A stretch of 64,000 nt of DNA from Kribbella italica (GTDB lineage: Bacteria; Actinomycetota; Actinomycetes; Propionibacteriales; Kribbellaceae). The notes below the pieces were generated by a model. It did not search any database. It saw only the letters and a program-made list of their open reading frames with translations, and was not told where the DNA came from. Made by a program: the position numbers and the translations under genes. Below are positions 33,857-52,010 of this stretch, piece after piece. Position 1 is the first letter of the stretch, and every line of letters begins with the position of its first letter. Where the stretch lies: positions 3,844,001 through 3,908,000 of the forward strand of contig NZ_JACHMY010000001.1 in assembly GCF_014205135.1 (NCBI RefSeq), read 5' to 3'.

Positions 33857-33999
33857 CGCCTACCTCCCGCCCGAGGTGGGCGGGGCGTTTACTCCCACCG
33901 AGGTGGGCGGGGCGCCTACCTCACGCCCGAGGTGGGCGGGGGCGCCTACTCCCGCCCGAGGTGGGCGGGGCGCCTACCTCACGCCTGAGGTGGGTGGGT
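33857..33999. repeat. Tandem repeat, about five copies of a 28-30-bp unit
   Basis: The unit contains CCTCACGCCCGAGGTGGGCG, repeated five times with small changes (28-30 bp spacing). Each unit can fold because CTACCTC and GAGGTGG are complementary. The last unit supplies the final residues (PPTSGVR) and the stop codon of the LysR gene; the rest lies in the convergent gap behind the SDR. Confidence 0.85.
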
Positions 34000-45208: not shown

Positions 45209-46081
45209 TCAGGCGTACACGGTGAGCGCGCCCGGCGCGATGCCGATGTCGATCGGCAGCGGACCGAGGATCTCGCCGTCGCCGTACGCCGTGACCGTCG
45301 GCGACTCCAGCCGGACCTCGCGGCCGCGCAGCGTGTGTACCGCCGGGTGCCCGAGATGGGTGGCCTTGGACAGCTTCGGGAACATCTGCAGCAGGGTCAG
45401 CCGCGACACCGGCTTGATGATCGTGACGTCGAGCAGGCCGTCGTCGATCTCGGCGCCGGCCAGGATCTGCAGGCCACCGCCGTACGTCGGGCCGGTGCCG
45501 ACGGCGACCAGCATCGCGTCGGTCTCGAACCGCTCGCCGTCCACCGTCACGACGTACGAGAGCGGCTTGAACGTCCGCAGCTCGGCCAGCGTCGCGACCG
45601 TGTAGCGGGCGTTGCCCTTCGGCCAGGTCATCGCGTTGGCGCGCTTGTTCACCAGGGAGTCGAAGCCGCCCGCGACGACGGTGGTGATGTACTCCCCTGC
45701 CGCGACGCCGAGGTCGATGTCCCGCGTCCTGCCCACGACGATCAGGTCGGCGGCGGCCACCGGGTCCTTCAGCGGTACGCCGAGGCCGCGGGCGAAGTCG
45801 TTGCCGGTGCCGGCCGGGATCACGCCGAACGGCATCCCGGACTTGGCCAGCACCTGCGCGCCCAGGTGCAGCGTGCCGTCGCCGCCGACCAGGGCGACGC
45901 CGTCCGCACCGGAGGCGACCACTTCGGCCGCGATCCGGCCGACGTCCTCCGCGCAGGTCGTCTCGTACAGGTCGACGGTCAGGCCGCCGGCTTCCAGCCG
46001 CTGCCGCACCACCGGAGCGACTCGCGCACCCAGGCCGCGGCCGCTGGTGGGGTTGACCACCAGCGCGATCCTGCGGCCCAT
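45209..46081 (-). CDS. Diacylglycerol kinase-family lipid kinase (DagK/YegS-like)
   Basis: A 290-residue lipid kinase. IALVVNPTSGRG starts the fold, VGGDGTLH near residue 70 is the nucleotide-binding GGDGT motif, and PAGTGNDFARGLG near 95 is the second signature. It phosphorylates diacylglycerol or a related lipid with ATP at the membrane. It starts at ATG 46081, overlapping the tatC stop by one base (TGATG), so it is coupled to tatC. Confidence 0.9.
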   Translation of the reverse strand: MGRRIALVVNPTSGRGLGARVAPVVRQRLEAGGLTVDLYETTCAEDVGRIAAEVVASGADGVALVGGDGTLHLGAQVLAKSGMPFGVIPAGTGNDFARGLGVPLKDPVAAADLIVVGRTRDIDLGVAAGEYITTVVAGGFDSLVNKRANAMTWPKGNARYTVATLAELRTFKPLSYVVTVDGERFETDAMLVAVGTGPTYGGGLQILAGAEIDDGLLDVTIIKPVSRLTLLQMFPKLSKATHLGHPAVHTLRGREVRLESPTVTAYGDGEILGPLPIDIGIAPGALTVYA

Positions 46082-46902
46082 CAGTCCGCCAGCAGCGCTT
46101 CGGCCTTGCGGGCCTTCCGCTTGTCGAGGATCCGGGCGATGATCTCCGAGGCGAAGAACAGCGCGCACATCGGCAGCGCCAGGAACATCAGCGAGAACGG
46201 GTCACCCGACGGCGTCGCGACCGCGCCGAAGATGAAGATCGCCAAGATGATGTACGGCCGGAACTTGGCCAGCGCCTTAGCCGGCACGATCCCGACGATG
46301 TTCAGCAGCACGACGACCAGCGGCAGCAGGAACGCGATCCCGAACACCAGCATCGTGCGCAGGACGAAGTCCAGGTACTCCGGCAGGGTGATCAGGTTCT
46401 GGGCGAAGTCCGGGGTGAAGCCGATCAGGATCGCGATGCCTTTCGGCAGCGTCCAGTAGGCCACCGCGAGGCCGGCCGCGAACAGCGGAGTCGCGATCCC
46501 GGCGAACAGGAACGCCCAGCGCCGCTCGGAGCGGTGCAGGCCGGGCGCGATGAACGCCCACAGCTCGTACAGCCAGACCGGCGCGGCCAGGATCAGGCCG
46601 AACACCAGCGAGATCTTGATCTGGAAGGTGAACGGCGAGGTCACGTTGTTGAAGGTGAGCTCGGGCACCTTGCCGCCGCTGTTGTCCGCGATCAGCTGGG
46701 CCACACCGGTTCTGAACGGCTTGACCAGGAAGTCCAGCGCCTGGTCGTAGAAGACGTACCCCACGACCGTCAGCAGCACGATCGCGAGCACCGAGATGAG
46801 CAGCCGGTTGCGCAGCTCCGCGATGTGGTCGCGCAGGGTCATCCGACCCTCTTCGTCCCTCGGACGGCGCTCTTTCCGCCGTCCGAATCTCACCATCGTC
46901 AC
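46081..46902 (-). CDS. tatC: Sec-independent translocase TatC
   Basis: A 273-residue protein with six membrane helices. The N-terminal MTLRDHIAELRNRLLIS (about residues 21-37) is the TatC cytoplasmic signal-recognition start; the conserved FTFQIKISLVFGLILAAPVWLYELWAF and FGIAFLLPLVV follow. TatC binds twin-arginine signal peptides and works with TatA. The ATG at 46902 gives a 20-residue basic leader; the ATG at residue 21 is a possible alternative. Confidence 0.95.
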   Translation of the reverse strand: MTMVRFGRRKERRPRDEEGRMTLRDHIAELRNRLLISVLAIVLLTVVGYVFYDQALDFLVKPFRTGVAQLIADNSGGKVPELTFNNVTSPFTFQIKISLVFGLILAAPVWLYELWAFIAPGLHRSERRWAFLFAGIATPLFAAGLAVAYWTLPKGIAILIGFTPDFAQNLITLPEYLDFVLRTMLVFGIAFLLPLVVVLLNIVGIVPAKALAKFRPYIILAIFIFGAVATPSGDPFSLMFLALPMCALFFASEIIARILDKRKARKAEALLAD

Positions 46903-46918
46903 AGGTGGTGCGCGCGAC

Positions 46919-47224
46919 TCAGTTGGCGGTGTGCGTCGGCGGCACGCCGTCGCCCGGGGCCTGACCGTTCGCCTGGTTCTGCTGCGGGGCCGGCTGGGCC
47001 TGCTGCACCGGCGGCTGGACGTGCTGCTGGGCCGGCGGCTGGCCGGTCTCGGTCAGCTCGGCGTCCTTCTTCTTGCCGGGGCCGACCTCTTCCTCCCAGA
47101 TCTTCTTCGACTTGCCGAGCTGCTTGACCAGGGCCGGCAGCTTGGCCGAACCGAACAGCAGCACGACGATCGCAAGAATGACGAGCCACTCTGCGCCCTG
47201 GGGCATACCGATAAGCGGGGGCAT
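46919..47224 (-). CDS. tatA: Twin-arginine translocase subunit TatA
   Basis: A 101-residue protein. One N-terminal membrane helix (AEWLVILAIVVLLFGSAKLP) is followed by the amphipathic helix with LVKQLGKSKKIWEEE, then a glutamine/proline-rich tail (QQHVQPPVQQAQPAPQQNQ). TatA forms the protein-conducting assembly with TatC. The ATG at 47224 is followed by PPLIGMPQGAEW, consistent with the family. Confidence 0.94.
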   Translation of the reverse strand: MPPLIGMPQGAEWLVILAIVVLLFGSAKLPALVKQLGKSKKIWEEEVGPGKKKDAELTETGQPPAQQHVQPPVQQAQPAPQQNQANGQAPGDGVPPTHTAN

Positions 47225-47277
47225 GAGGATCTCCCTTTCACGACTATCCGATGGCTCAACGTGAGACTGGGCCGATA

Positions 47278-47466
47278 CTACGCCCGGGACCGAGCAGATT
47301 CCCCGGCCCTGTCCGGACCTGACCTCTGCGCTGCCTCGAGCTTGGACTGGGCGGCGCCCAACTCTCGCGTCAGCGCCTTGGTCTTGCCCCACAGCTTCTT
47401 CGCGAGCAAGGCGAGGACCAGGAGCCACACCGCCACGACCGCGAGAAAGAGCAGGAACCAGAACAT
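47278..47466 (-). CDS. Small membrane protein of unknown function
   Basis: A 62-residue protein. An N-terminal helix (FWFLLFLAVVAVWLLVLALL) is followed by a charged helical tail (KKLWGKTKALTRELGAAQSKLEAAQ) likely to form a coiled coil. It runs in the tat direction 53 bp upstream of tatA. Small proteins like this are common beside tatA in actinobacteria; no function is known. Confidence 0.7.
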   Translation of the reverse strand: MFWFLLFLAVVAVWLLVLALLAKKLWGKTKALTRELGAAQSKLEAAQRSGPDRAGESARSRA

Positions 47467-47562
47467 GTCCCGACCTTATCCGGTTCGGAGCCACCGCCCA
47501 CGCGGATGGGTGTTCGTCGCGGGCAACGGTGTCGGAACGTGATGGTAAGAATTGGTGTCGGG

Positions 47563-47730
47563 CTAGGGTGTGTCTCCCAATTCCCGCCGTAGCGAGCAGG
47601 TGCTCGGCGCGGTAGCTCGGAGTGCTGGAGTGAAGCCCTCGATGTTTTTCCATCGTGGGTTTTGCTCCAGTGCTCCGAGGTGCCGTGCCGAGTGCCGCGC
47701 AGTAGGCGGGAATTGGGAGACACACCCTAG
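47563..47730. repeat. Long-hairpin repeat, copy 2 (perfect 26-nt arms)
   Basis: The arms 47563-47588 and 47705-47730 are perfectly complementary (CTAGGGTGTGTCTCCCAATT... on the left). The inner part, with GTAGCGAGCAGGTGCTCGG, CTCGGAG/CTCCGAG, CTGGAG/CTCCAG and the tip CGATG-TTTTT-C-CATCG, matches copy 1 at 24066-24229. The outer stem sequence and the CTCGGAG stem differ from copy 1 but still pair within this copy. It is flanked by CTAG at both ends and lies 24 bp before the winged-helix gene. Confidence 0.87.
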
Positions 47731-47754
47731 GGCGGGACCGTATCGAGGGGGGCT

Positions 47755-48948
47755 GTGGTGCTGCGGATCGGGATCGAGGAACGACGGCTCAGACTGGGGC
47801 GCCGGCACCGGCTGGCGACCTCCTGCCAGGCGGCCGATCCGGTGCAGGCGGCGGCTTCGGTCGTGGTGCTGCACGCGACCGACCCGGCCACGGTGCATCT
47901 GTCGGTCGCCGCGCGGGTGCCGGGCAGTGATGTCGCGCTCACCGAGCGTGCGCTGTACGACGACCGCACGCTGATCCGGATGCTCGGGATGCGGCGCACG
48001 GTGTTCGTCGTACCGACCTCGTTCGCGCCGGTCGTCCAGGCCGCGGCGAGCGACGACATCGCGGTGAAGCAGCGCAAGTTGCTGGTCAAGCACCTGGTCG
48101 AGGCCGGGATCGCCGGTGAGGCCGAGGCGGCCGGGCAGTGGCTGCGGGCGGTCGAGGAGTCGACGGCGACCGCGCTCAGCCTGCGCGGCTCGGCCACGGC
48201 GCAGGAGCTCGCCCAGGACGAGCCCCGGCTCCGCAGCCGCCTGGCGATGGCCCCGGGCAAGTCGTACGCGGCCCAGCCGTATGTCACCAGCCGCGTCCTC
48301 TTCCAGCTCGCCGCCGAGGGCCGCATCGTCCGCGGCCGCCCGCTGGGCACGTGGCTGAGCAGCCAGCACCAGTGGTCCCCCGCGGAGGACTGGCTCGCAG
48401 GCGGTCTGGCCGGCGACCTGTCCGCCGACGAAGCCCGTACGACGCTCGCCCGCAGCTACCTGGAGTCCTTCGGCCCAGCCACCCTCGCCGACCTCCAGTG
48501 GTGGACCGGCTGGACCCTGGGCCAGTCCCGCAAGGCCCTGGTCGCCGTAGAAGCCGTAGAGGTCGACCTGGACGGCGTCACCGGCTACGTCCTCCCCGGC
48601 GACGAGGCCCCCGAGATCGCCGTCGAACCCTGGGTCGCCTTCCTCCCCGCCCTGGACCCCACCCCCATGGGCTGGAAGGACCGCACCTGGTACCTCGGCG
48701 AGCACAAGACCCGCCTGTTCGACACCACCGGCAACATCGGCCCCAGCATCTGGGCCAACGGCCGCATCGTCGGCGCCTGGGGCCAACCCGAGTCAGGCGA
48801 GGTCCGCTACCAACTCCTCGAAGACGTCGGCACCGAAACCACCACCGCCATCGAATCCCACGCCGCCCGCTGGACCACCTGGCTCTCCGGCGTCCGCATC
48901 ACCCCCCGCTTCCGCACTCCCCTGGAACGAATCCTCAGCCAGGGCTGA
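47755..48948 (+). CDS. Winged-helix DNA-binding protein (HTH_42/AlkZ-like), altered active site
   Basis: A 397-residue member of the winged-helix family that includes the DNA glycosylases AlkZ and YcaQ. The N-terminal half has three winged-helix-like parts and the C-terminal half a beta-barrel region (GYVLPGDEAPEIAVEPWVAFLPALDPTPMGWKDR; IWANGRIVGAWGQ). In AlkZ-type glycosylases the catalytic Q-x-Q/Q-x-D lies in a LQAQDP-like segment near residue 40; here it reads LHATDP, so the glutamines are absent. It may have lost glycosylase activity or be a regulator. It starts just after the hairpin repeat. Confidence 0.75.
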   Translation: MVLRIGIEERRLRLGRRHRLATSCQAADPVQAAASVVVLHATDPATVHLSVAARVPGSDVALTERALYDDRTLIRMLGMRRTVFVVPTSFAPVVQAAASDDIAVKQRKLLVKHLVEAGIAGEAEAAGQWLRAVEESTATALSLRGSATAQELAQDEPRLRSRLAMAPGKSYAAQPYVTSRVLFQLAAEGRIVRGRPLGTWLSSQHQWSPAEDWLAGGLAGDLSADEARTTLARSYLESFGPATLADLQWWTGWTLGQSRKALVAVEAVEVDLDGVTGYVLPGDEAPEIAVEPWVAFLPALDPTPMGWKDRTWYLGEHKTRLFDTTGNIGPSIWANGRIVGAWGQPESGEVRYQLLEDVGTETTTAIESHAARWTTWLSGVRITPRFRTPLERILSQG

Positions 48949-48949
48949 C

Positions 48950-49600
48950 CCACGCGGCGACGCCGCCCCCGCCCCCTGCGCCCCCGGATCCACGCAGACG
49001 CCACCATCTCCTCCAGACGGCCACCGCCCCCTACCCACCCTCAGCCCCACACAGGCACCACCACCTCCTCCCCGAGCCGCCCGTCCCGACCCGGACTCCC
49101 GCAGACACCACGTCCTCCGCCCTACCCTCGGACTCCCGCAGACACCGCGGCCTCTTCCACCGGCCGCCACCCCCTGCTCCCCGACCCCACAGAGGCCACC
49201 CCGTCTTGCGCCCGGCCACCGTCCTTCCCTGCCCCGGCCCCGCAGGCGCAACCACCTCTTCCACCAGCCACCAGTCCTCCCCGCCCCAGCCCCGCGCAGA
49301 CACCACCCGGCTCCCCACAGATACCACCACTTGTTTCACCCGGCCGCCGCCACTTCCTCCCCCAGCCGCCGCCCCTTCCACCCCGGCCCCGGCAATACCA
49401 CTACCTCTTCCACCCCACCACCGTCCCTGCCCACCCACCCCACGCCGACACCACCACGTCCTCCAACCGGCGACCGCCGCTCCCCACCCCCGGCCCACCC
49501 CCGAGCCCCAGCCCCAGCTCCCGCCACCCGCAGACACCACCACCTCTTCCACCCGGCCGCTGCAACCTCAGCCCAAGGCAACCCCGCCGGCCGCATCTGC
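48950..49600. repeat. Degenerate minisatellite 1, C-rich, period about 50 bp
   Basis: About ten or more imperfect copies of a unit containing GCAGACACCACCACCTCTTC, followed by CACCCGGCCGCC-like and CCCCGGCCCC-like blocks, period roughly 37-60 bp. The plus strand is extremely C-rich and the minus strand G-rich over about 650 bp. No frame has conserved coding character; open frames on both strands merely repeat HHHLL/EEVVV-type words. Noncoding, directly after the winged-helix gene. Confidence 0.8.
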
Positions 49601-49705
49601 AGGGCGCTCGCCACACGCCGTACCGCCATCACCCGGGGAACAGGGTCGCGCCCATGCGGCCGACAAGGTGGTCTTGGGCTGAGACCGCACCGGCCGGGAA
49701 CAAGT

Positions 49706-49950
49706 GCGAGTGGTGCGTGCAACCTGGCGTGGGGGGTGGAGTGCGCGCGAGTGGTGCGTGCGACCTGGCGCGGGGGTGGAGTGGGCGCGAGTGGAGCCTG
49801 CTCCCGGAGTGGGGGTATGGGATGAGCGCGAGTAGTGCGTGCGACCTGGCCCGGGGTGGGGTGAGCGCGAGTAGTGCGTGCAACCTGGCGCGGGGGGGCG
49901 CGTGGAGCCTGCGCGGGTGGTGCCTGCGACCTGGTGTGGGATGGAGCGGG
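49706..49950. repeat. Minisatellite 2, G-rich, period about 40 bp
   Basis: About six imperfect copies of a unit starting GCGAGTGGTGCGTGCAACCT and ending in G-rich sequence (GGGGGTGGAGTG). Copies start near 49706, 49747, 49787, 49828, 49867 and 49912 (39-45 bp apart). The period is mostly not a multiple of three, so it is noncoding. Nothing else was recognised in 49601-49705 and 49951-50017. Confidence 0.85.
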
Positions 49951-50017
49951 CGGGCGGTGCTGAGTCGGCTCGGCTCGCCGGGCAGTGTGCACCGCGGCAT
50001 CAGCAAGTACTGGCGCC

Positions 50018-50995
50018 CTACAGCTGGTCGTCGTACGCGGACAATGCCTCTCGGGCCGTGTTGGCGATCTGGGCGCCCAGGTCGGCTGGTTCCAGGACTG
50101 TGGCGGAGCCGCCGAGGCGGAGGACCAGGCGTTGGAGCCAGGAGGTGTCGGCTACGCGGAGCTGGATGATGAGGGAACCGTCGGGGCCCTCTTCGACCGA
50201 CTCGGTGGGGTAGTACTCGGCGACCCACCGCGCAGGGGGTGCGAGTGACACGGTGGCCAGGAGGTCGCACTCCGACGGCTGGAACATGCCGTTGGAGAGG
50301 TCTCGTGGCGTCGCCTCAGGCGGGGGCTCGCTGGGGAGGTCGAGGAGCTTGACGCCGGCGATGCGGTCGAGGCGGAAGAGGCGGACGTCCTCGGCGAGGC
50401 GGCACCAGGCTTCCAGGTACGTGCGGCCCTCCGAGACGACCAGGCGCATCGGGTCGACGTCGCGCTCGGTGGTCTCGTCGCGGGACGGTACGTCGTACGT
50501 GAGGTGCAGGCGGCGCTTGCCGGCCAGGCCGCGGTTGACGGTCTCGGCGATCTCGGGTGCGGCGGGCTCGACGTGCACGTGCGCGGCCGCGCCCTCGACG
50601 GCAGCGGCGCCCGCGCCGGCGGCCGTCTCCAGCTTGGCGATCGCGCGGTCGACGGCGTCGCGGTCCGCGCCGGCGGTGACCTCGCGCAGGGTCCGCAGCG
50701 CGGTCAGCAGCGCCAGCGCCTCGTCCGCGGCCAGGCGCAGCGGCCGCGCCAGATAGTCGGCGTTGTTCAGGTGGATGACGCCTTCGCCCTCGGCGGCGTC
50801 GATGTCGATCTCGATCAGGTCGCCCATCTGCGCGCCCGGCAGCCCGCAGAACCACAGCACCTTCAGGTCCGCGATGATCTGCTTAGGCCGTACGCCGAAG
50901 TCCGCCGCGACGTCGTCGACCCGCGCCCCGTCGTTCTCCCGCAGGTACGGCACCAGCGCCAGCAACCGCTGCACCTGATCACGCGCGTTGCTCAT
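50018..50995 (-). CDS. pafC: PafC, WYL-domain transcriptional regulator
   Basis: A 325-residue protein. An N-terminal winged helix (RDQVQRLLALVPYLRENDGA, then FGVRPKQIIADLKVLWFCGL) spans about residues 4-55. The WYL sensor part (RLHLTYDVPSRDETTERDVD; RTYLEAWCRLAEDVRLFRLDRI) lies about 165-245, with a C-terminal WCX-like region. PafB and PafC act together as activator of the mycobacterial LexA-independent DNA-damage response. The ATG at 50995 overlaps the pafB stop (ATGA). Confidence 0.93.
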   Translation of the reverse strand: MSNARDQVQRLLALVPYLRENDGARVDDVAADFGVRPKQIIADLKVLWFCGLPGAQMGDLIEIDIDAAEGEGVIHLNNADYLARPLRLAADEALALLTALRTLREVTAGADRDAVDRAIAKLETAAGAGAAAVEGAAAHVHVEPAAPEIAETVNRGLAGKRRLHLTYDVPSRDETTERDVDPMRLVVSEGRTYLEAWCRLAEDVRLFRLDRIAGVKLLDLPSEPPPEATPRDLSNGMFQPSECDLLATVSLAPPARWVAEYYPTESVEEGPDGSLIIQLRVADTSWLQRLVLRLGGSATVLEPADLGAQIANTAREALSAYDDQL

Positions 50996-51951
50996 CCGAC
51001 CCCCGCCACCGTGCGCAGCCTGCGCAGTACGCCGTCCAGCACGTCGCCCGGGCCCTCGACCACGGCATCCGGCCCGTACGACGCGATCTCCTCGGCCAGC
51101 ACGCCCGAGTCGGCGTACGGAACATGCAGCAGGTCCCAGCCCTCCTCGTACGGCTCGATCGCGTTCGCGCGGCGGCGCAGGCTGACGCACGAGCCGGTGC
51201 GCGCCCGGACCTTCGCCTCGGACGTCGGCCGCGGCGGCGCCAGCTCGGAGACGAGCGAGCGCAGATCGGTCCCCTCCGGCACCGTGAACGCCCCGGCCGA
51301 GCCGACGGTCCTCACGTTCCCGCCGATCCGCGACATCCGGAACATCCGCGTCGCCTCCCGGTCGCGGTCGCGGCCGACGACGTACCAGCGGCCGTGCCAC
51401 GACACGATCCCCCACGGCTCCAGCGTCCGCAGCGTCGCCTCGGACGCGCCGGAACGCCGGTGCTCGAAGCGGACCGCCGTCCGGCTGACCACCGCGGACC
51501 ACAGCGGGTCGAAGGCCGGCTCGGACGCGCCGACGTGCGGCTCGATCGCGCTCAGCGCGGACTGGTCGGTCTGGATCCCGGCCGCCTTCAGCTTCAGCAC
51601 CGCCGAGGTGGTCGCCTCGGCCAGGCTGGCGTGCTGCCAGACCCGCGCGGCGACACCGAGTACGGCGGCCTCGTCGGGCTCCAGATGCACCTCGGGCAGC
51701 TCGAAGACGTCGCGGCGGATCCGGTAGCCGACGTCGTCGGAGAAGAACTTGTCGATGGTGCCCATCTCGATCGGGATGCCGAGGTCGCGCAACTCGTCCT
51801 TGTCGCGCTCGAACATCTTCTCGAAGGCGTCGTCGGTCTGCCCGGCGTAGCCCTCGACCACCTCGCGGATCCGCTCCTTGGTCACGTACGTGCGCGCGAC
51901 CAGCAGGCAGATCACCAGGTTGAGCAGCCGCTCACTCTTCCGCGCCGACAC
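50992..51951 (-). CDS. pafB: PafB, WYL-domain transcriptional regulator
   Basis: A 319-residue protein. The N-terminal winged helix is KSERLLNLVICLLVARTYVT, then DAFEKMFERDKDELRDLGIPIE (about residues 5-65). The WYL segment is near residues 190-235 (GRWYVVGRDRDREATRMFRMSRI). It forms the DNA-damage-response activator with PafC. A LexA-box-like site lies 46 bp upstream of its start. ATG 51951 gives the conserved start. Confidence 0.93.
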   Translation of the reverse strand: MSARKSERLLNLVICLLVARTYVTKERIREVVEGYAGQTDDAFEKMFERDKDELRDLGIPIEMGTIDKFFSDDVGYRIRRDVFELPEVHLEPDEAAVLGVAARVWQHASLAEATTSAVLKLKAAGIQTDQSALSAIEPHVGASEPAFDPLWSAVVSRTAVRFEHRRSGASEATLRTLEPWGIVSWHGRWYVVGRDRDREATRMFRMSRIGGNVRTVGSAGAFTVPEGTDLRSLVSELAPPRPTSEAKVRARTGSCVSLRRRANAIEPYEEGWDLLHVPYADSGVLAEEIASYGPDAVVEGPGDVLDGVLRRLRTVAGVG

Positions 51952-51996
51952 CCGACCACCTTACGGGTTCAGGAGGCCGAATCACGCAGTGCACGC

Positions 51997-52010
51997 CGAA
52001 CAGGTGTTCT
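51997..52010. promoter_or_regulatory. SOS (LexA) box-like site between pafB and DUF3866 gene
   Basis: CGAACAGGTGTTCT matches the Gram-positive LexA consensus CGAACRNRYGTTYC except for the last base. It lies 46 bp before pafB (minus strand) and 55 bp before the DUF3866 gene (plus strand), in promoter position for both. Confidence 0.55.

What the first reader, a model, noticed from the sequence alone, without database searches (positions are those of the whole stretch)
48950..49600. About 650 bp of strongly C-rich degenerate 50-bp minisatellite
At least ten imperfect copies of a unit with GCAGACACCACCACCTCTTC follow the winged-helix gene. The strand asymmetry is extreme (plus C-rich, minus G-rich), so the minus strand can form G-rich structures and the region may form R-loops. 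No protein constraint is visible.
Basis: seen in the sequence. Interest (0 to 1): 0.6.

Follow-up and report, generated by a model that had tools for sequence, protein, structure and literature searches.

The report
Strand-polar C-rich repeats beside dispersed element
The C-rich repeats after a DNA-repair-like gene in a soil bacterium (Kribbella) end at a short DNA element scattered more than 80 times through this genome, and DNA just ahead of most copies, genes included, is skewed towards C and A on one strand, which hints at an unusual one-sided mutation or transcription-ending process.

Summary
The C-rich tract is real: 48949-49536 has C-G skew 0.54, with imperfect repeats above shuffle level. 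It is less regular than reported (seven 55-nt copies, 60-76% alike, irregular spacing; TRF calls no 50-bp array) and is half of a mirror-image structure. Between convergent AlkZ-like and pafC genes, a C-rich tract, two head-to-head copies of a ~70-nt element (49537-49603 +, 49642-49713 -) and a G-rich array (49706-49897) fill 1.07 kb that is 3-269 nt in 16 other Kribbella.

The element is a dispersed family: 83 copies at E<=1e-5 in this genome, 8 in the nearest sampled relative, 0-4 in 36 other Kribbella, none in 245 other genomes drawn from the class. Two CGGCCG blocks are intact in 84 of 87 copies; the rest of the core is 69% identical. On its 5' side lie tandem repeats (61 of 87 copies) and C>G, A>T skew fading over about 1 kb, including third codon positions; on average the skew follows the element's strand in genes of either orientation.

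Best reading (0.4): a cis-acting element marking a strand-polar mutation zone. Main rival (0.3): Rho-dependent terminators. Element-free skew islands and downstream skew weaken strict causation.

The parts
47755..48948 (+). AlkZ-like winged-helix gene; its last ~180 codons carry a strong C-over-G bias at third positions (44/7, 47/12, 38/16 per 60 codons)
   Evidence: Pfam PF06224 E 7.6e-66; codon counts
48949..49536 (+). C-rich, G-poor degenerate minisatellite with about 7 irregular copies of a ~55-nt unit (the last runs on into the element); minus strand G-rich with canonical G4 motifs
49537..49603 (+). copy of the dispersed ~70-nt element, forward, at the 3' edge of the C-rich tract
   Evidence: R1 match 51.1 bits; genome search E 9.4e-13
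49642..49713 (-). second copy of the element, inverted (head to head with the first)
   Evidence: R1 match 55.2 bits; genome search E 4.4e-14; inverted repeat I1
49706..49897 (-). tandem array, 41/81-bp period, G-rich on + and C-rich on the strand of the second element: mirror image of the first tract
   Evidence: TRF scores 210 and 254; 49714-49960 C-G skew -0.41
50018..51010 (-). pafC, convergent with the AlkZ-like gene; its 3' end also has C3>G3 (37/14 in the last 60 codons)
   Evidence: Pfam HTH_PafC/WYL/WCX

Best explanation
The region is a head-to-head pair of units of a dispersed Kribbella repeat family. Each unit is a ~70-nt conserved element with a C/A-rich, G/T-poor zone on its 5' side that is strongest next to the element and fades over about 1 kb. 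Shown: the element family, its two nearly invariant CGGCCG blocks, the average polarity of the skew, its spread into third codon positions of neighbouring genes, its tendency to follow the element's strand rather than the gene's sense, and the excess of tandem arrays. Inferred: the element is a cis-acting site at which one strand (the G-rich one) is repeatedly exposed or re-synthesised on the 5' side, for example in R-loops of leftward transcripts or after a nick, so that strand-biased substitution and slippage build C-rich minisatellites there. The protein or RNA that acts at the element is unknown.
For: 83 copies at E<=1e-5 in the own genome, 86 at E<=6e-5 and 101 at E<=0.1; 87 at E<=0.001 in 51 fetched stretches, the weakest 18.9 bits. 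Mean C-G skew 0.34 in the 50 nt upstream, 0.08-0.14 from 100 nt downstream on; paired 400-nt comparison: upstream mean 0.29, downstream 0.12, p 2e-11; one copy per locus, n=59, p 3e-7. Third positions of same-strand upstream genes 0-200 nt away: A .17 C .64 G .18 T .01; C .50 G .43 at 1.4-1.6 kb. In genes of opposite orientation the third-position skew is shifted towards the element strand (upstream n=13, mean 0.10, A/T 159/73, p 0.011; downstream n=23, mean 0.07, A/T 334/165, p 9e-5). Of 36 skew islands with an element within 300 nt, 35 are strand-concordant, 1 mixed, 0 discordant. At loci scored as lacking the element in the nearest sampled relative, that relative's upstream 4-fold sites (0-400 nt, 179 sites, 5 genes) are C .46 G .43 against C .79 G .11 here. 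TRF arrays within 600 nt upstream of 61 of 87 copies, against 12 of 127 control spacers (spacers are shorter than 600 nt on the whole, median 228). At one orthologous element (L187/L250) the upstream repeat units look wholly different in the two species (by eye). Both CGGCCG blocks intact in 84 of 87 (55 of 58 not used for the model) while the rest of the core is 69% identical.
Against: Skew islands also occur without an element: 6 in 600 kb of control and 6 in 395 kb of the relative (no R1 match under E 0.05 there). 34 of 70 islands in the element regions, window included, have no element within 300 nt; of the 32 in the 50 regions without the window, 29 are concordant with the nearest element but 25 of those lie downstream of it, so the domain is wider than the polar model says. 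Genes downstream are shifted too. 5 of the 13 opposed upstream genes have skew against the element strand. Downstream same-strand genes are already C-skewed in the relative at loci scored as lacking the element (C .64-.70, G .20-.26; 2-4 genes per bin). The AddA-like gene is skewed on both sides of its element, and four relatives without the element have a milder C bias there. 13 of 18 other Kribbella show C3>=1.5xG3 in the last 60 AlkZ codons, though no element is seen in the gap of the 12 of them in which it could be read (by eye). No RVT_1 or Y1_Tnp gene was found as a partner. No RNA or repair data.
Confidence: 0.4

Rival explanations
1. Bidirectional Rho-dependent terminator zone: each convergent transcript runs into a long C-rich, G-poor, unstructured stretch (rut) followed by a conserved hairpin-prone pause/3'-end element; selection for Rho loading made and kept the C-richness.
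For: C>G, A>T composition suits an unstructured rut (general knowledge). Upstream neighbour on the element's strand in 61 of 84 intergenic copies; counted once per spacer and strand: convergent 18, co-directional same strand 27, co-directional opposite 11, divergent 5, inside genes 3; control spacers >=150 nt: 18 convergent, 39 divergent, 70 co-directional. At the AlkZ/pafC junction most relatives show the C bias mainly in the last ~60 codons of both genes, and it is absent in L038 where other coding sequence separates them.
Against: The skew leans to the element strand even in genes of opposite sense and runs ~1 kb into translated sequence, where a rut would be covered by ribosomes. Control convergent ends show little of it (C3 skew 0.13-0.20 here, -0.04 to 0.07 in the relative). 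L050 and L053 are close convergent pairs without it. Elements sit inside the AddA-like and sucB reading frames.
Confidence: 0.3
2. Passive mobile or duplicating repeat: the element is a non-autonomous repeat that spreads into, and is kept in, C-skewed zones that arise for another reason; the minisatellites are ordinary slippage in low-complexity C-rich DNA.
For: Copy number jump in one species (83 copies versus 8 and 0-4); several copies within a few hundred bases at some loci; element-free skew islands exist; same spacer in two species with opposite element orientation (L195/L249).
Against: Copies are diverged (mean core identity 0.79) yet keep both blocks, which drifting insertions would not; upstream sequence is not skewed in the relative at loci scored as lacking the element; strict strand concordance of islands that hold an element.
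Confidence: 0.22
3. Mutagenic retrohoming of the DGR type, with the element as initiation site and an error-prone reverse transcriptase rewriting the 5' side.
For: Polar, distance-limited, strand-biased change next to a conserved element resembles the layout of a DGR variable repeat and IMH (recalled).
Against: No RVT_1 domain in this genome (0 matches; 6 of 35 genomes searched have one); no template repeat noticed (not searched for); substitutions are not restricted to one base.
Confidence: 0.02

Closest known systems
Rho utilisation (rut) sites / Rho-dependent terminators
   Same: Long C-rich, G-poor stretch after a gene, followed by a hairpin-prone segment; mostly at gene 3' ends.
   Different: Tied to a 70-nt sequence-conserved element; skew reaches ~1 kb into coding sequence and leans to the element strand in genes of either sense; termination untested.
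Bacterial dispersed intergenic repeats (REP/BIME, MITE-like families; recalled)
   Same: Short, intergenic, many copies in one species, some in tandem, lineage-specific expansion.
   Different: No terminal inverted repeats recognised; two self-complementary CGGCCG blocks 33-35 nt apart; no Y1 transposase found; most copies adjoin a C-rich, often tandem-repeated stretch on one side.
R-loop-prone G-skewed regions (immunoglobulin switch regions, CpG-island GC-skew zones; recalled)
   Same: G-rich non-template strand with tandem repeats and strand-asymmetric composition starting at a fixed point.
   Different: Bacterial; no promoter motif recognised in the element by eye; no evidence of transcription, deaminase or recombination.
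DGR variable repeat with IMH (recalled)
   Same: Conserved element at the 3' edge of a changing region.
   Different: No RVT_1 reverse transcriptase found; changes are not adenine-only.

Membership tests
Rho-dependent terminator | C-rich, G-poor stretch of roughly 80 nt or more in the transcript | tested here: met
   48949-49536: C 0.58, G 0.17; mirrored on the pafC side
Rho-dependent terminator | lies downstream of genes in the sense of transcription | tested here: inconclusive
   True for both window genes; 61 of 84 intergenic copies genome-wide, 23 of 84 have an opposed upstream neighbour
Rho-dependent terminator | RNA 3' ends that depend on Rho | not testable with these tools
   no RNA data
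MITE-like element | terminal inverted repeats with target-site duplication | tested here: inconclusive
   No terminal inverted repeats recognised by eye in the 87-copy alignment; spacers without the element in the relative are too diverged to show duplications
REP/RAYT | Y1_Tnp (RAYT) transposase in the genome | tested here: not met
   PF01797: 0 matches in the own genome, 0 of 13 genomes; 5 of 14 controls ring
DGR | reverse transcriptase | tested here: not met
   PF00078: 0 matches in the own genome; 3 of 14 controls ring
Known structured RNA (Rfam) | match at gathering score | tested here: not met
   window 46000-52000: one hit, 20.8 bits against a gathering score of 70, inside AlkZ
Protein-coding repeat | conserved frame or family match | tested here: not met
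   no Pfam match; 84 of 87 copies intergenic; block spacing 33, 34 or 35 nt in 86 of 87

The most novel reading that the evidence does not exclude
A dispersed bacterial cis-element that directs strand-polar sequence change: on its 5' side one DNA strand is repeatedly exposed or re-copied, driving C/A enrichment at third codon positions of neighbouring genes and the birth of locus-specific minisatellites.
Probability: 0.3. Interest if true: 0.85.

Novelty: new variant of a known kind. Interest (0 to 1): 0.6.

Why it matters
If the polarity is mutational, this Kribbella genome offers a natural series of more than 80 copies at which a defined sequence seems to bend the substitution pattern of adjacent genes and seed tandem repeats, a directly testable model for how minisatellites and local strand asymmetry arise in bacteria. 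If it is Rho termination, it would be an unusually recognisable, sequence-conserved class of Rho terminator. Either way, codon-bias and selection analyses of genes next to these elements could be misled.

Tried and rejected
Generic 3'-end effect: control gene ends show only weak C bias (last 25 codons 0.17 at convergent ends against 0.09 where the next gene follows within 40 nt; p 0.051 for the last 50 codons), so it is not a feature of all convergent genes. Coding origin: variation in the 87-copy alignment did not look like third-position variation (by eye) and block spacing varies by single bases; copies inside called genes are 3 of 87: sucB, an AddA-like gene and a secreted-protein-like gene (names by eye). 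RNA structure: the only RNAalifold stem is the invariant CGGCCG/CGGCCG pair, so there is no covariation to test. Replication-strand effect: orientations by position show no obvious replichore bias (by eye; origin not located). Viral or plasmid origin: no exact match to one pattern in viral contigs, none in plasmids. Literature: five full-text searches (listings and abstract starts only, no paper opened): 0 papers hold Kribbella + tandem repeat + intergenic; the 10 listed of 7,745 were about eukaryotic repeats and none held the word Kribbella; nothing on this element seen. Limits: gene calls are from my own codon-score finder, not curated; of 32 pattern hits I used 27 as seeds and left 5 out; that pattern demands the left block exactly and the right one with at most one change, so block conservation is best judged on the 58 non-seed copies; genome searches score a limited number of candidates per genome (83, 127, 19), which could miss weak copies; the loci scored as 'both species' are the seven, the others were taken as own-genome only, checked by eye for seven of them and the window; copies are clustered, so p-values over 87 copies are optimistic.

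Full report
CONTEXT. The window lies in an 8.89-Mb single-contig genome; the closest relatives of the AlkZ-like protein in species genomes are Kribbella (77-90% identity). The finding lies between an AlkZ-like winged-helix gene (47755-48948, +) and pafC (50018-51010, -), which converge. Among 18 other Kribbella loci, pafC was found near AlkZ in 17 (in L042 it was not; that locus ends early); the gap is 3-269 nt in 16, while L038, the closest relative, has 1.8 kb there with other coding sequence. The window's gap is 1.07 kb.

THE OBSERVATION. 48949-49536 is C 0.58, G 0.17, A 0.15, T 0.10. TRF does not call a 50-bp array. The tract is mirrored: 49706-49897 is a 41/81-bp array, G-rich on + and therefore C-rich on the pafC sense strand.

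A DISPERSED ELEMENT. Searching the own genome with the tract returned 27 further places; most matched only its last part or the inverted part after it. Reading nine of those loci showed a shared ~70-nt element. From 27 of 32 pattern hits a sequence-only model R1 was built. It finds 83 copies at E<=1e-5 in this genome, 86 at E<=6e-5 and 101 at E<=0.1. Over 51 stretches it found 87 at E<=0.001, the weakest at 18.9 bits. The consensus is roughly YYTCYTTYC-CGGCCG-CnGCGRCCTCAGCC-CCCGnCRACCTCC-CGGCCGCAT-CnCCRCCnACCTC. Both CGGCCG blocks are intact in 84 of 87 copies (55 of 58 non-seed copies), starting 33-35 nt apart in 86 of 87, while the remaining core is 69% identical on average. The window holds two copies head to head (49537-49603 + and 49642-49713 -), together foldable into a long imperfect hairpin.

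DISTRIBUTION. At E<=1e-5, 7 of 38 Kribbella genomes have matches: 83 here, 8 in G006, 4 in G028, 2 in G034, 1 each in G035, G015 and G020. None of 245 other genomes drawn from the class had a match at 1e-6, with 19 candidates scored in each genome listed. Seven of the eight G006 stretches fetched around its matches align with own-genome stretches around elements, as do the G035 and G034 stretches; the eighth (L251) aligned with none of the own-genome stretches I held. At seven element loci read in G006 no element was seen (L168/L283, L189/L273, L189/L274, L186/L268, L173/L279, L185/L267, L188/L272; R1 over L265-L284 gives nothing under E 0.05). The window locus in L038 shows none either (by eye). 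So many copies are specific to this lineage among sampled genomes, by gain here or loss there; gain is more likely because other Kribbella have 0-4.

POLAR SKEW. Averaged over 87 copies, C-G skew climbs over about 1 kb to 0.34 in the last 50 nt before the element and falls to 0.08-0.14 from 100 nt after it. 63 of 87 copies have skew >0.2 in the 400 nt upstream and 29 of 87 downstream; 6 of 127 control spacers reach 0.2 on their gene side in gene sense. In upstream genes on the same strand, third positions within 200 nt of the element are A .17, C .64, G .18, T .01 and C .50, G .43 by 1.4-1.6 kb (controls A .04 C .50 G .42 T .05). In genes of opposite orientation third positions are shifted towards the element strand (upstream n=13, p 0.011, though 5 of 13 lean the other way; downstream n=23, p 9e-5), which argues against selection on the gene's own message or codons. 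At loci scored as lacking the element in G006 its upstream 4-fold sites are balanced (C .46, G .43) while this genome has C .79, G .11; G>C differences outnumber C>G 57 to 7 (179 sites, 5 genes). In the window, AlkZ has 44/7, 47/12 and 38/16 C3/G3 in its last three 60-codon bins against 23/32, 29/29 and 27/29 in L038.

TANDEM REPEATS. TRF arrays (period >=9, covering over 3% of the stretch) lie within 600 nt upstream of 61 of 87 copies and downstream of 36, against 12 of 127 control spacers of 150 nt or more (stretch lengths differ). The units differ between the loci read and, at L187/L250, between species with the element conserved in place (by eye).

EVIDENCE AGAINST A SIMPLE CAUSAL STORY. 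Skew islands also exist without elements (6 in 600 kb of control, 6 in 395 kb of G006). In element regions 34 of 70 islands have no element within 300 nt; of the 32 in the 50 regions without the window, 29 share the nearest element's strand and 25 of those lie downstream of it. Same-strand genes downstream of elements are shifted as well (n=32, mean 0.32, p 7e-7) and are C-skewed in G006 too at loci scored as lacking the element. The AddA-like gene is skewed on both sides of its element here and in G006, and four relatives read without it have a weaker C bias there (three further loci came in the other orientation and gave no profile). 13 of 18 other Kribbella have C3>=1.5xG3 at the AlkZ 3' end, so part of the bias at this junction probably predates the element.

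MECHANISM. Three readings remain. (1) A strand-polar mutation zone set by the element: it explains strand-following across gene sense, spread into third positions, near-loss of T, and repeat birth; the agent is unknown, and an R-loop with leftward G-rich RNA or nick-primed strand displacement would both expose the right strand (inference). (2) Rho-dependent termination: it explains composition and the preference for gene ends and convergent spacers, but not opposed genes, kilobase reach into translated DNA, or copies inside reading frames. (3) A passive repeat in C-skewed zones: it explains expansion, not concordance and block conservation. I put 0.4, 0.3 and 0.22 on these. A DGR-type process is nearly excluded, since no RVT_1 domain is found here; a RAYT-type one is disfavoured, since no Y1_Tnp is found.

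The G-rich-structure idea holds as a possibility (5 of the window's 9 canonical G4 motifs are on the minus strand of this tract). The R-loop idea needs antisense transcription. The minisatellite is best seen as one half of a two-element, mirror-image locus.

Noticed in passing
window 47563-47730: Inverted repeat with 26-nt perfect ends (CTAGGGTGTGTCTCCCAATTCCCGCC and its complement, 168 bp overall), MITE-like, between the tat-side genes and AlkZ; copies elsewhere not searched.
   Followed up: no
window 33857-33998: 29-bp tandem array, 5 copies (58-bp period at 90% matches).
   Followed up: no
L038 5135-6963 (between AlkZ and pafC): The closest relative carries other coding sequence here (by eye a sigma-factor-like and a glyoxalase-like gene), so the AlkZ/pafC convergence is lost and both 3' ends lack the C bias.
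   Followed up: partly
L040, L043, L048, L054 AlkZ-pafC gaps: Gaps of 124-269 nt in four other Kribbella hold inverted repeats of their own (by eye), different from the element.
   Followed up: no
L009 about 1566-1780 (G000 about 2966.4 kb): A long array of a 12-bp GGCATGGGCGGT unit, nearly perfect, lies directly beside an element copy.
   Followed up: no
L172 (sucB), L184 (AddA-like), L205 (secreted-protein-like): In-frame element copies in Ala/Pro/Thr-rich linkers; sucB linkers of several Kribbella hold element-like sequence, a possible source or sink of the element.
   Followed up: partly
AlkZ and pafC 3' ends in other Kribbella: C3>>G3 strongest in the last 60 codons of both convergent genes in most relatives, absent in L038, L050 and L053.
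   Followed up: partly
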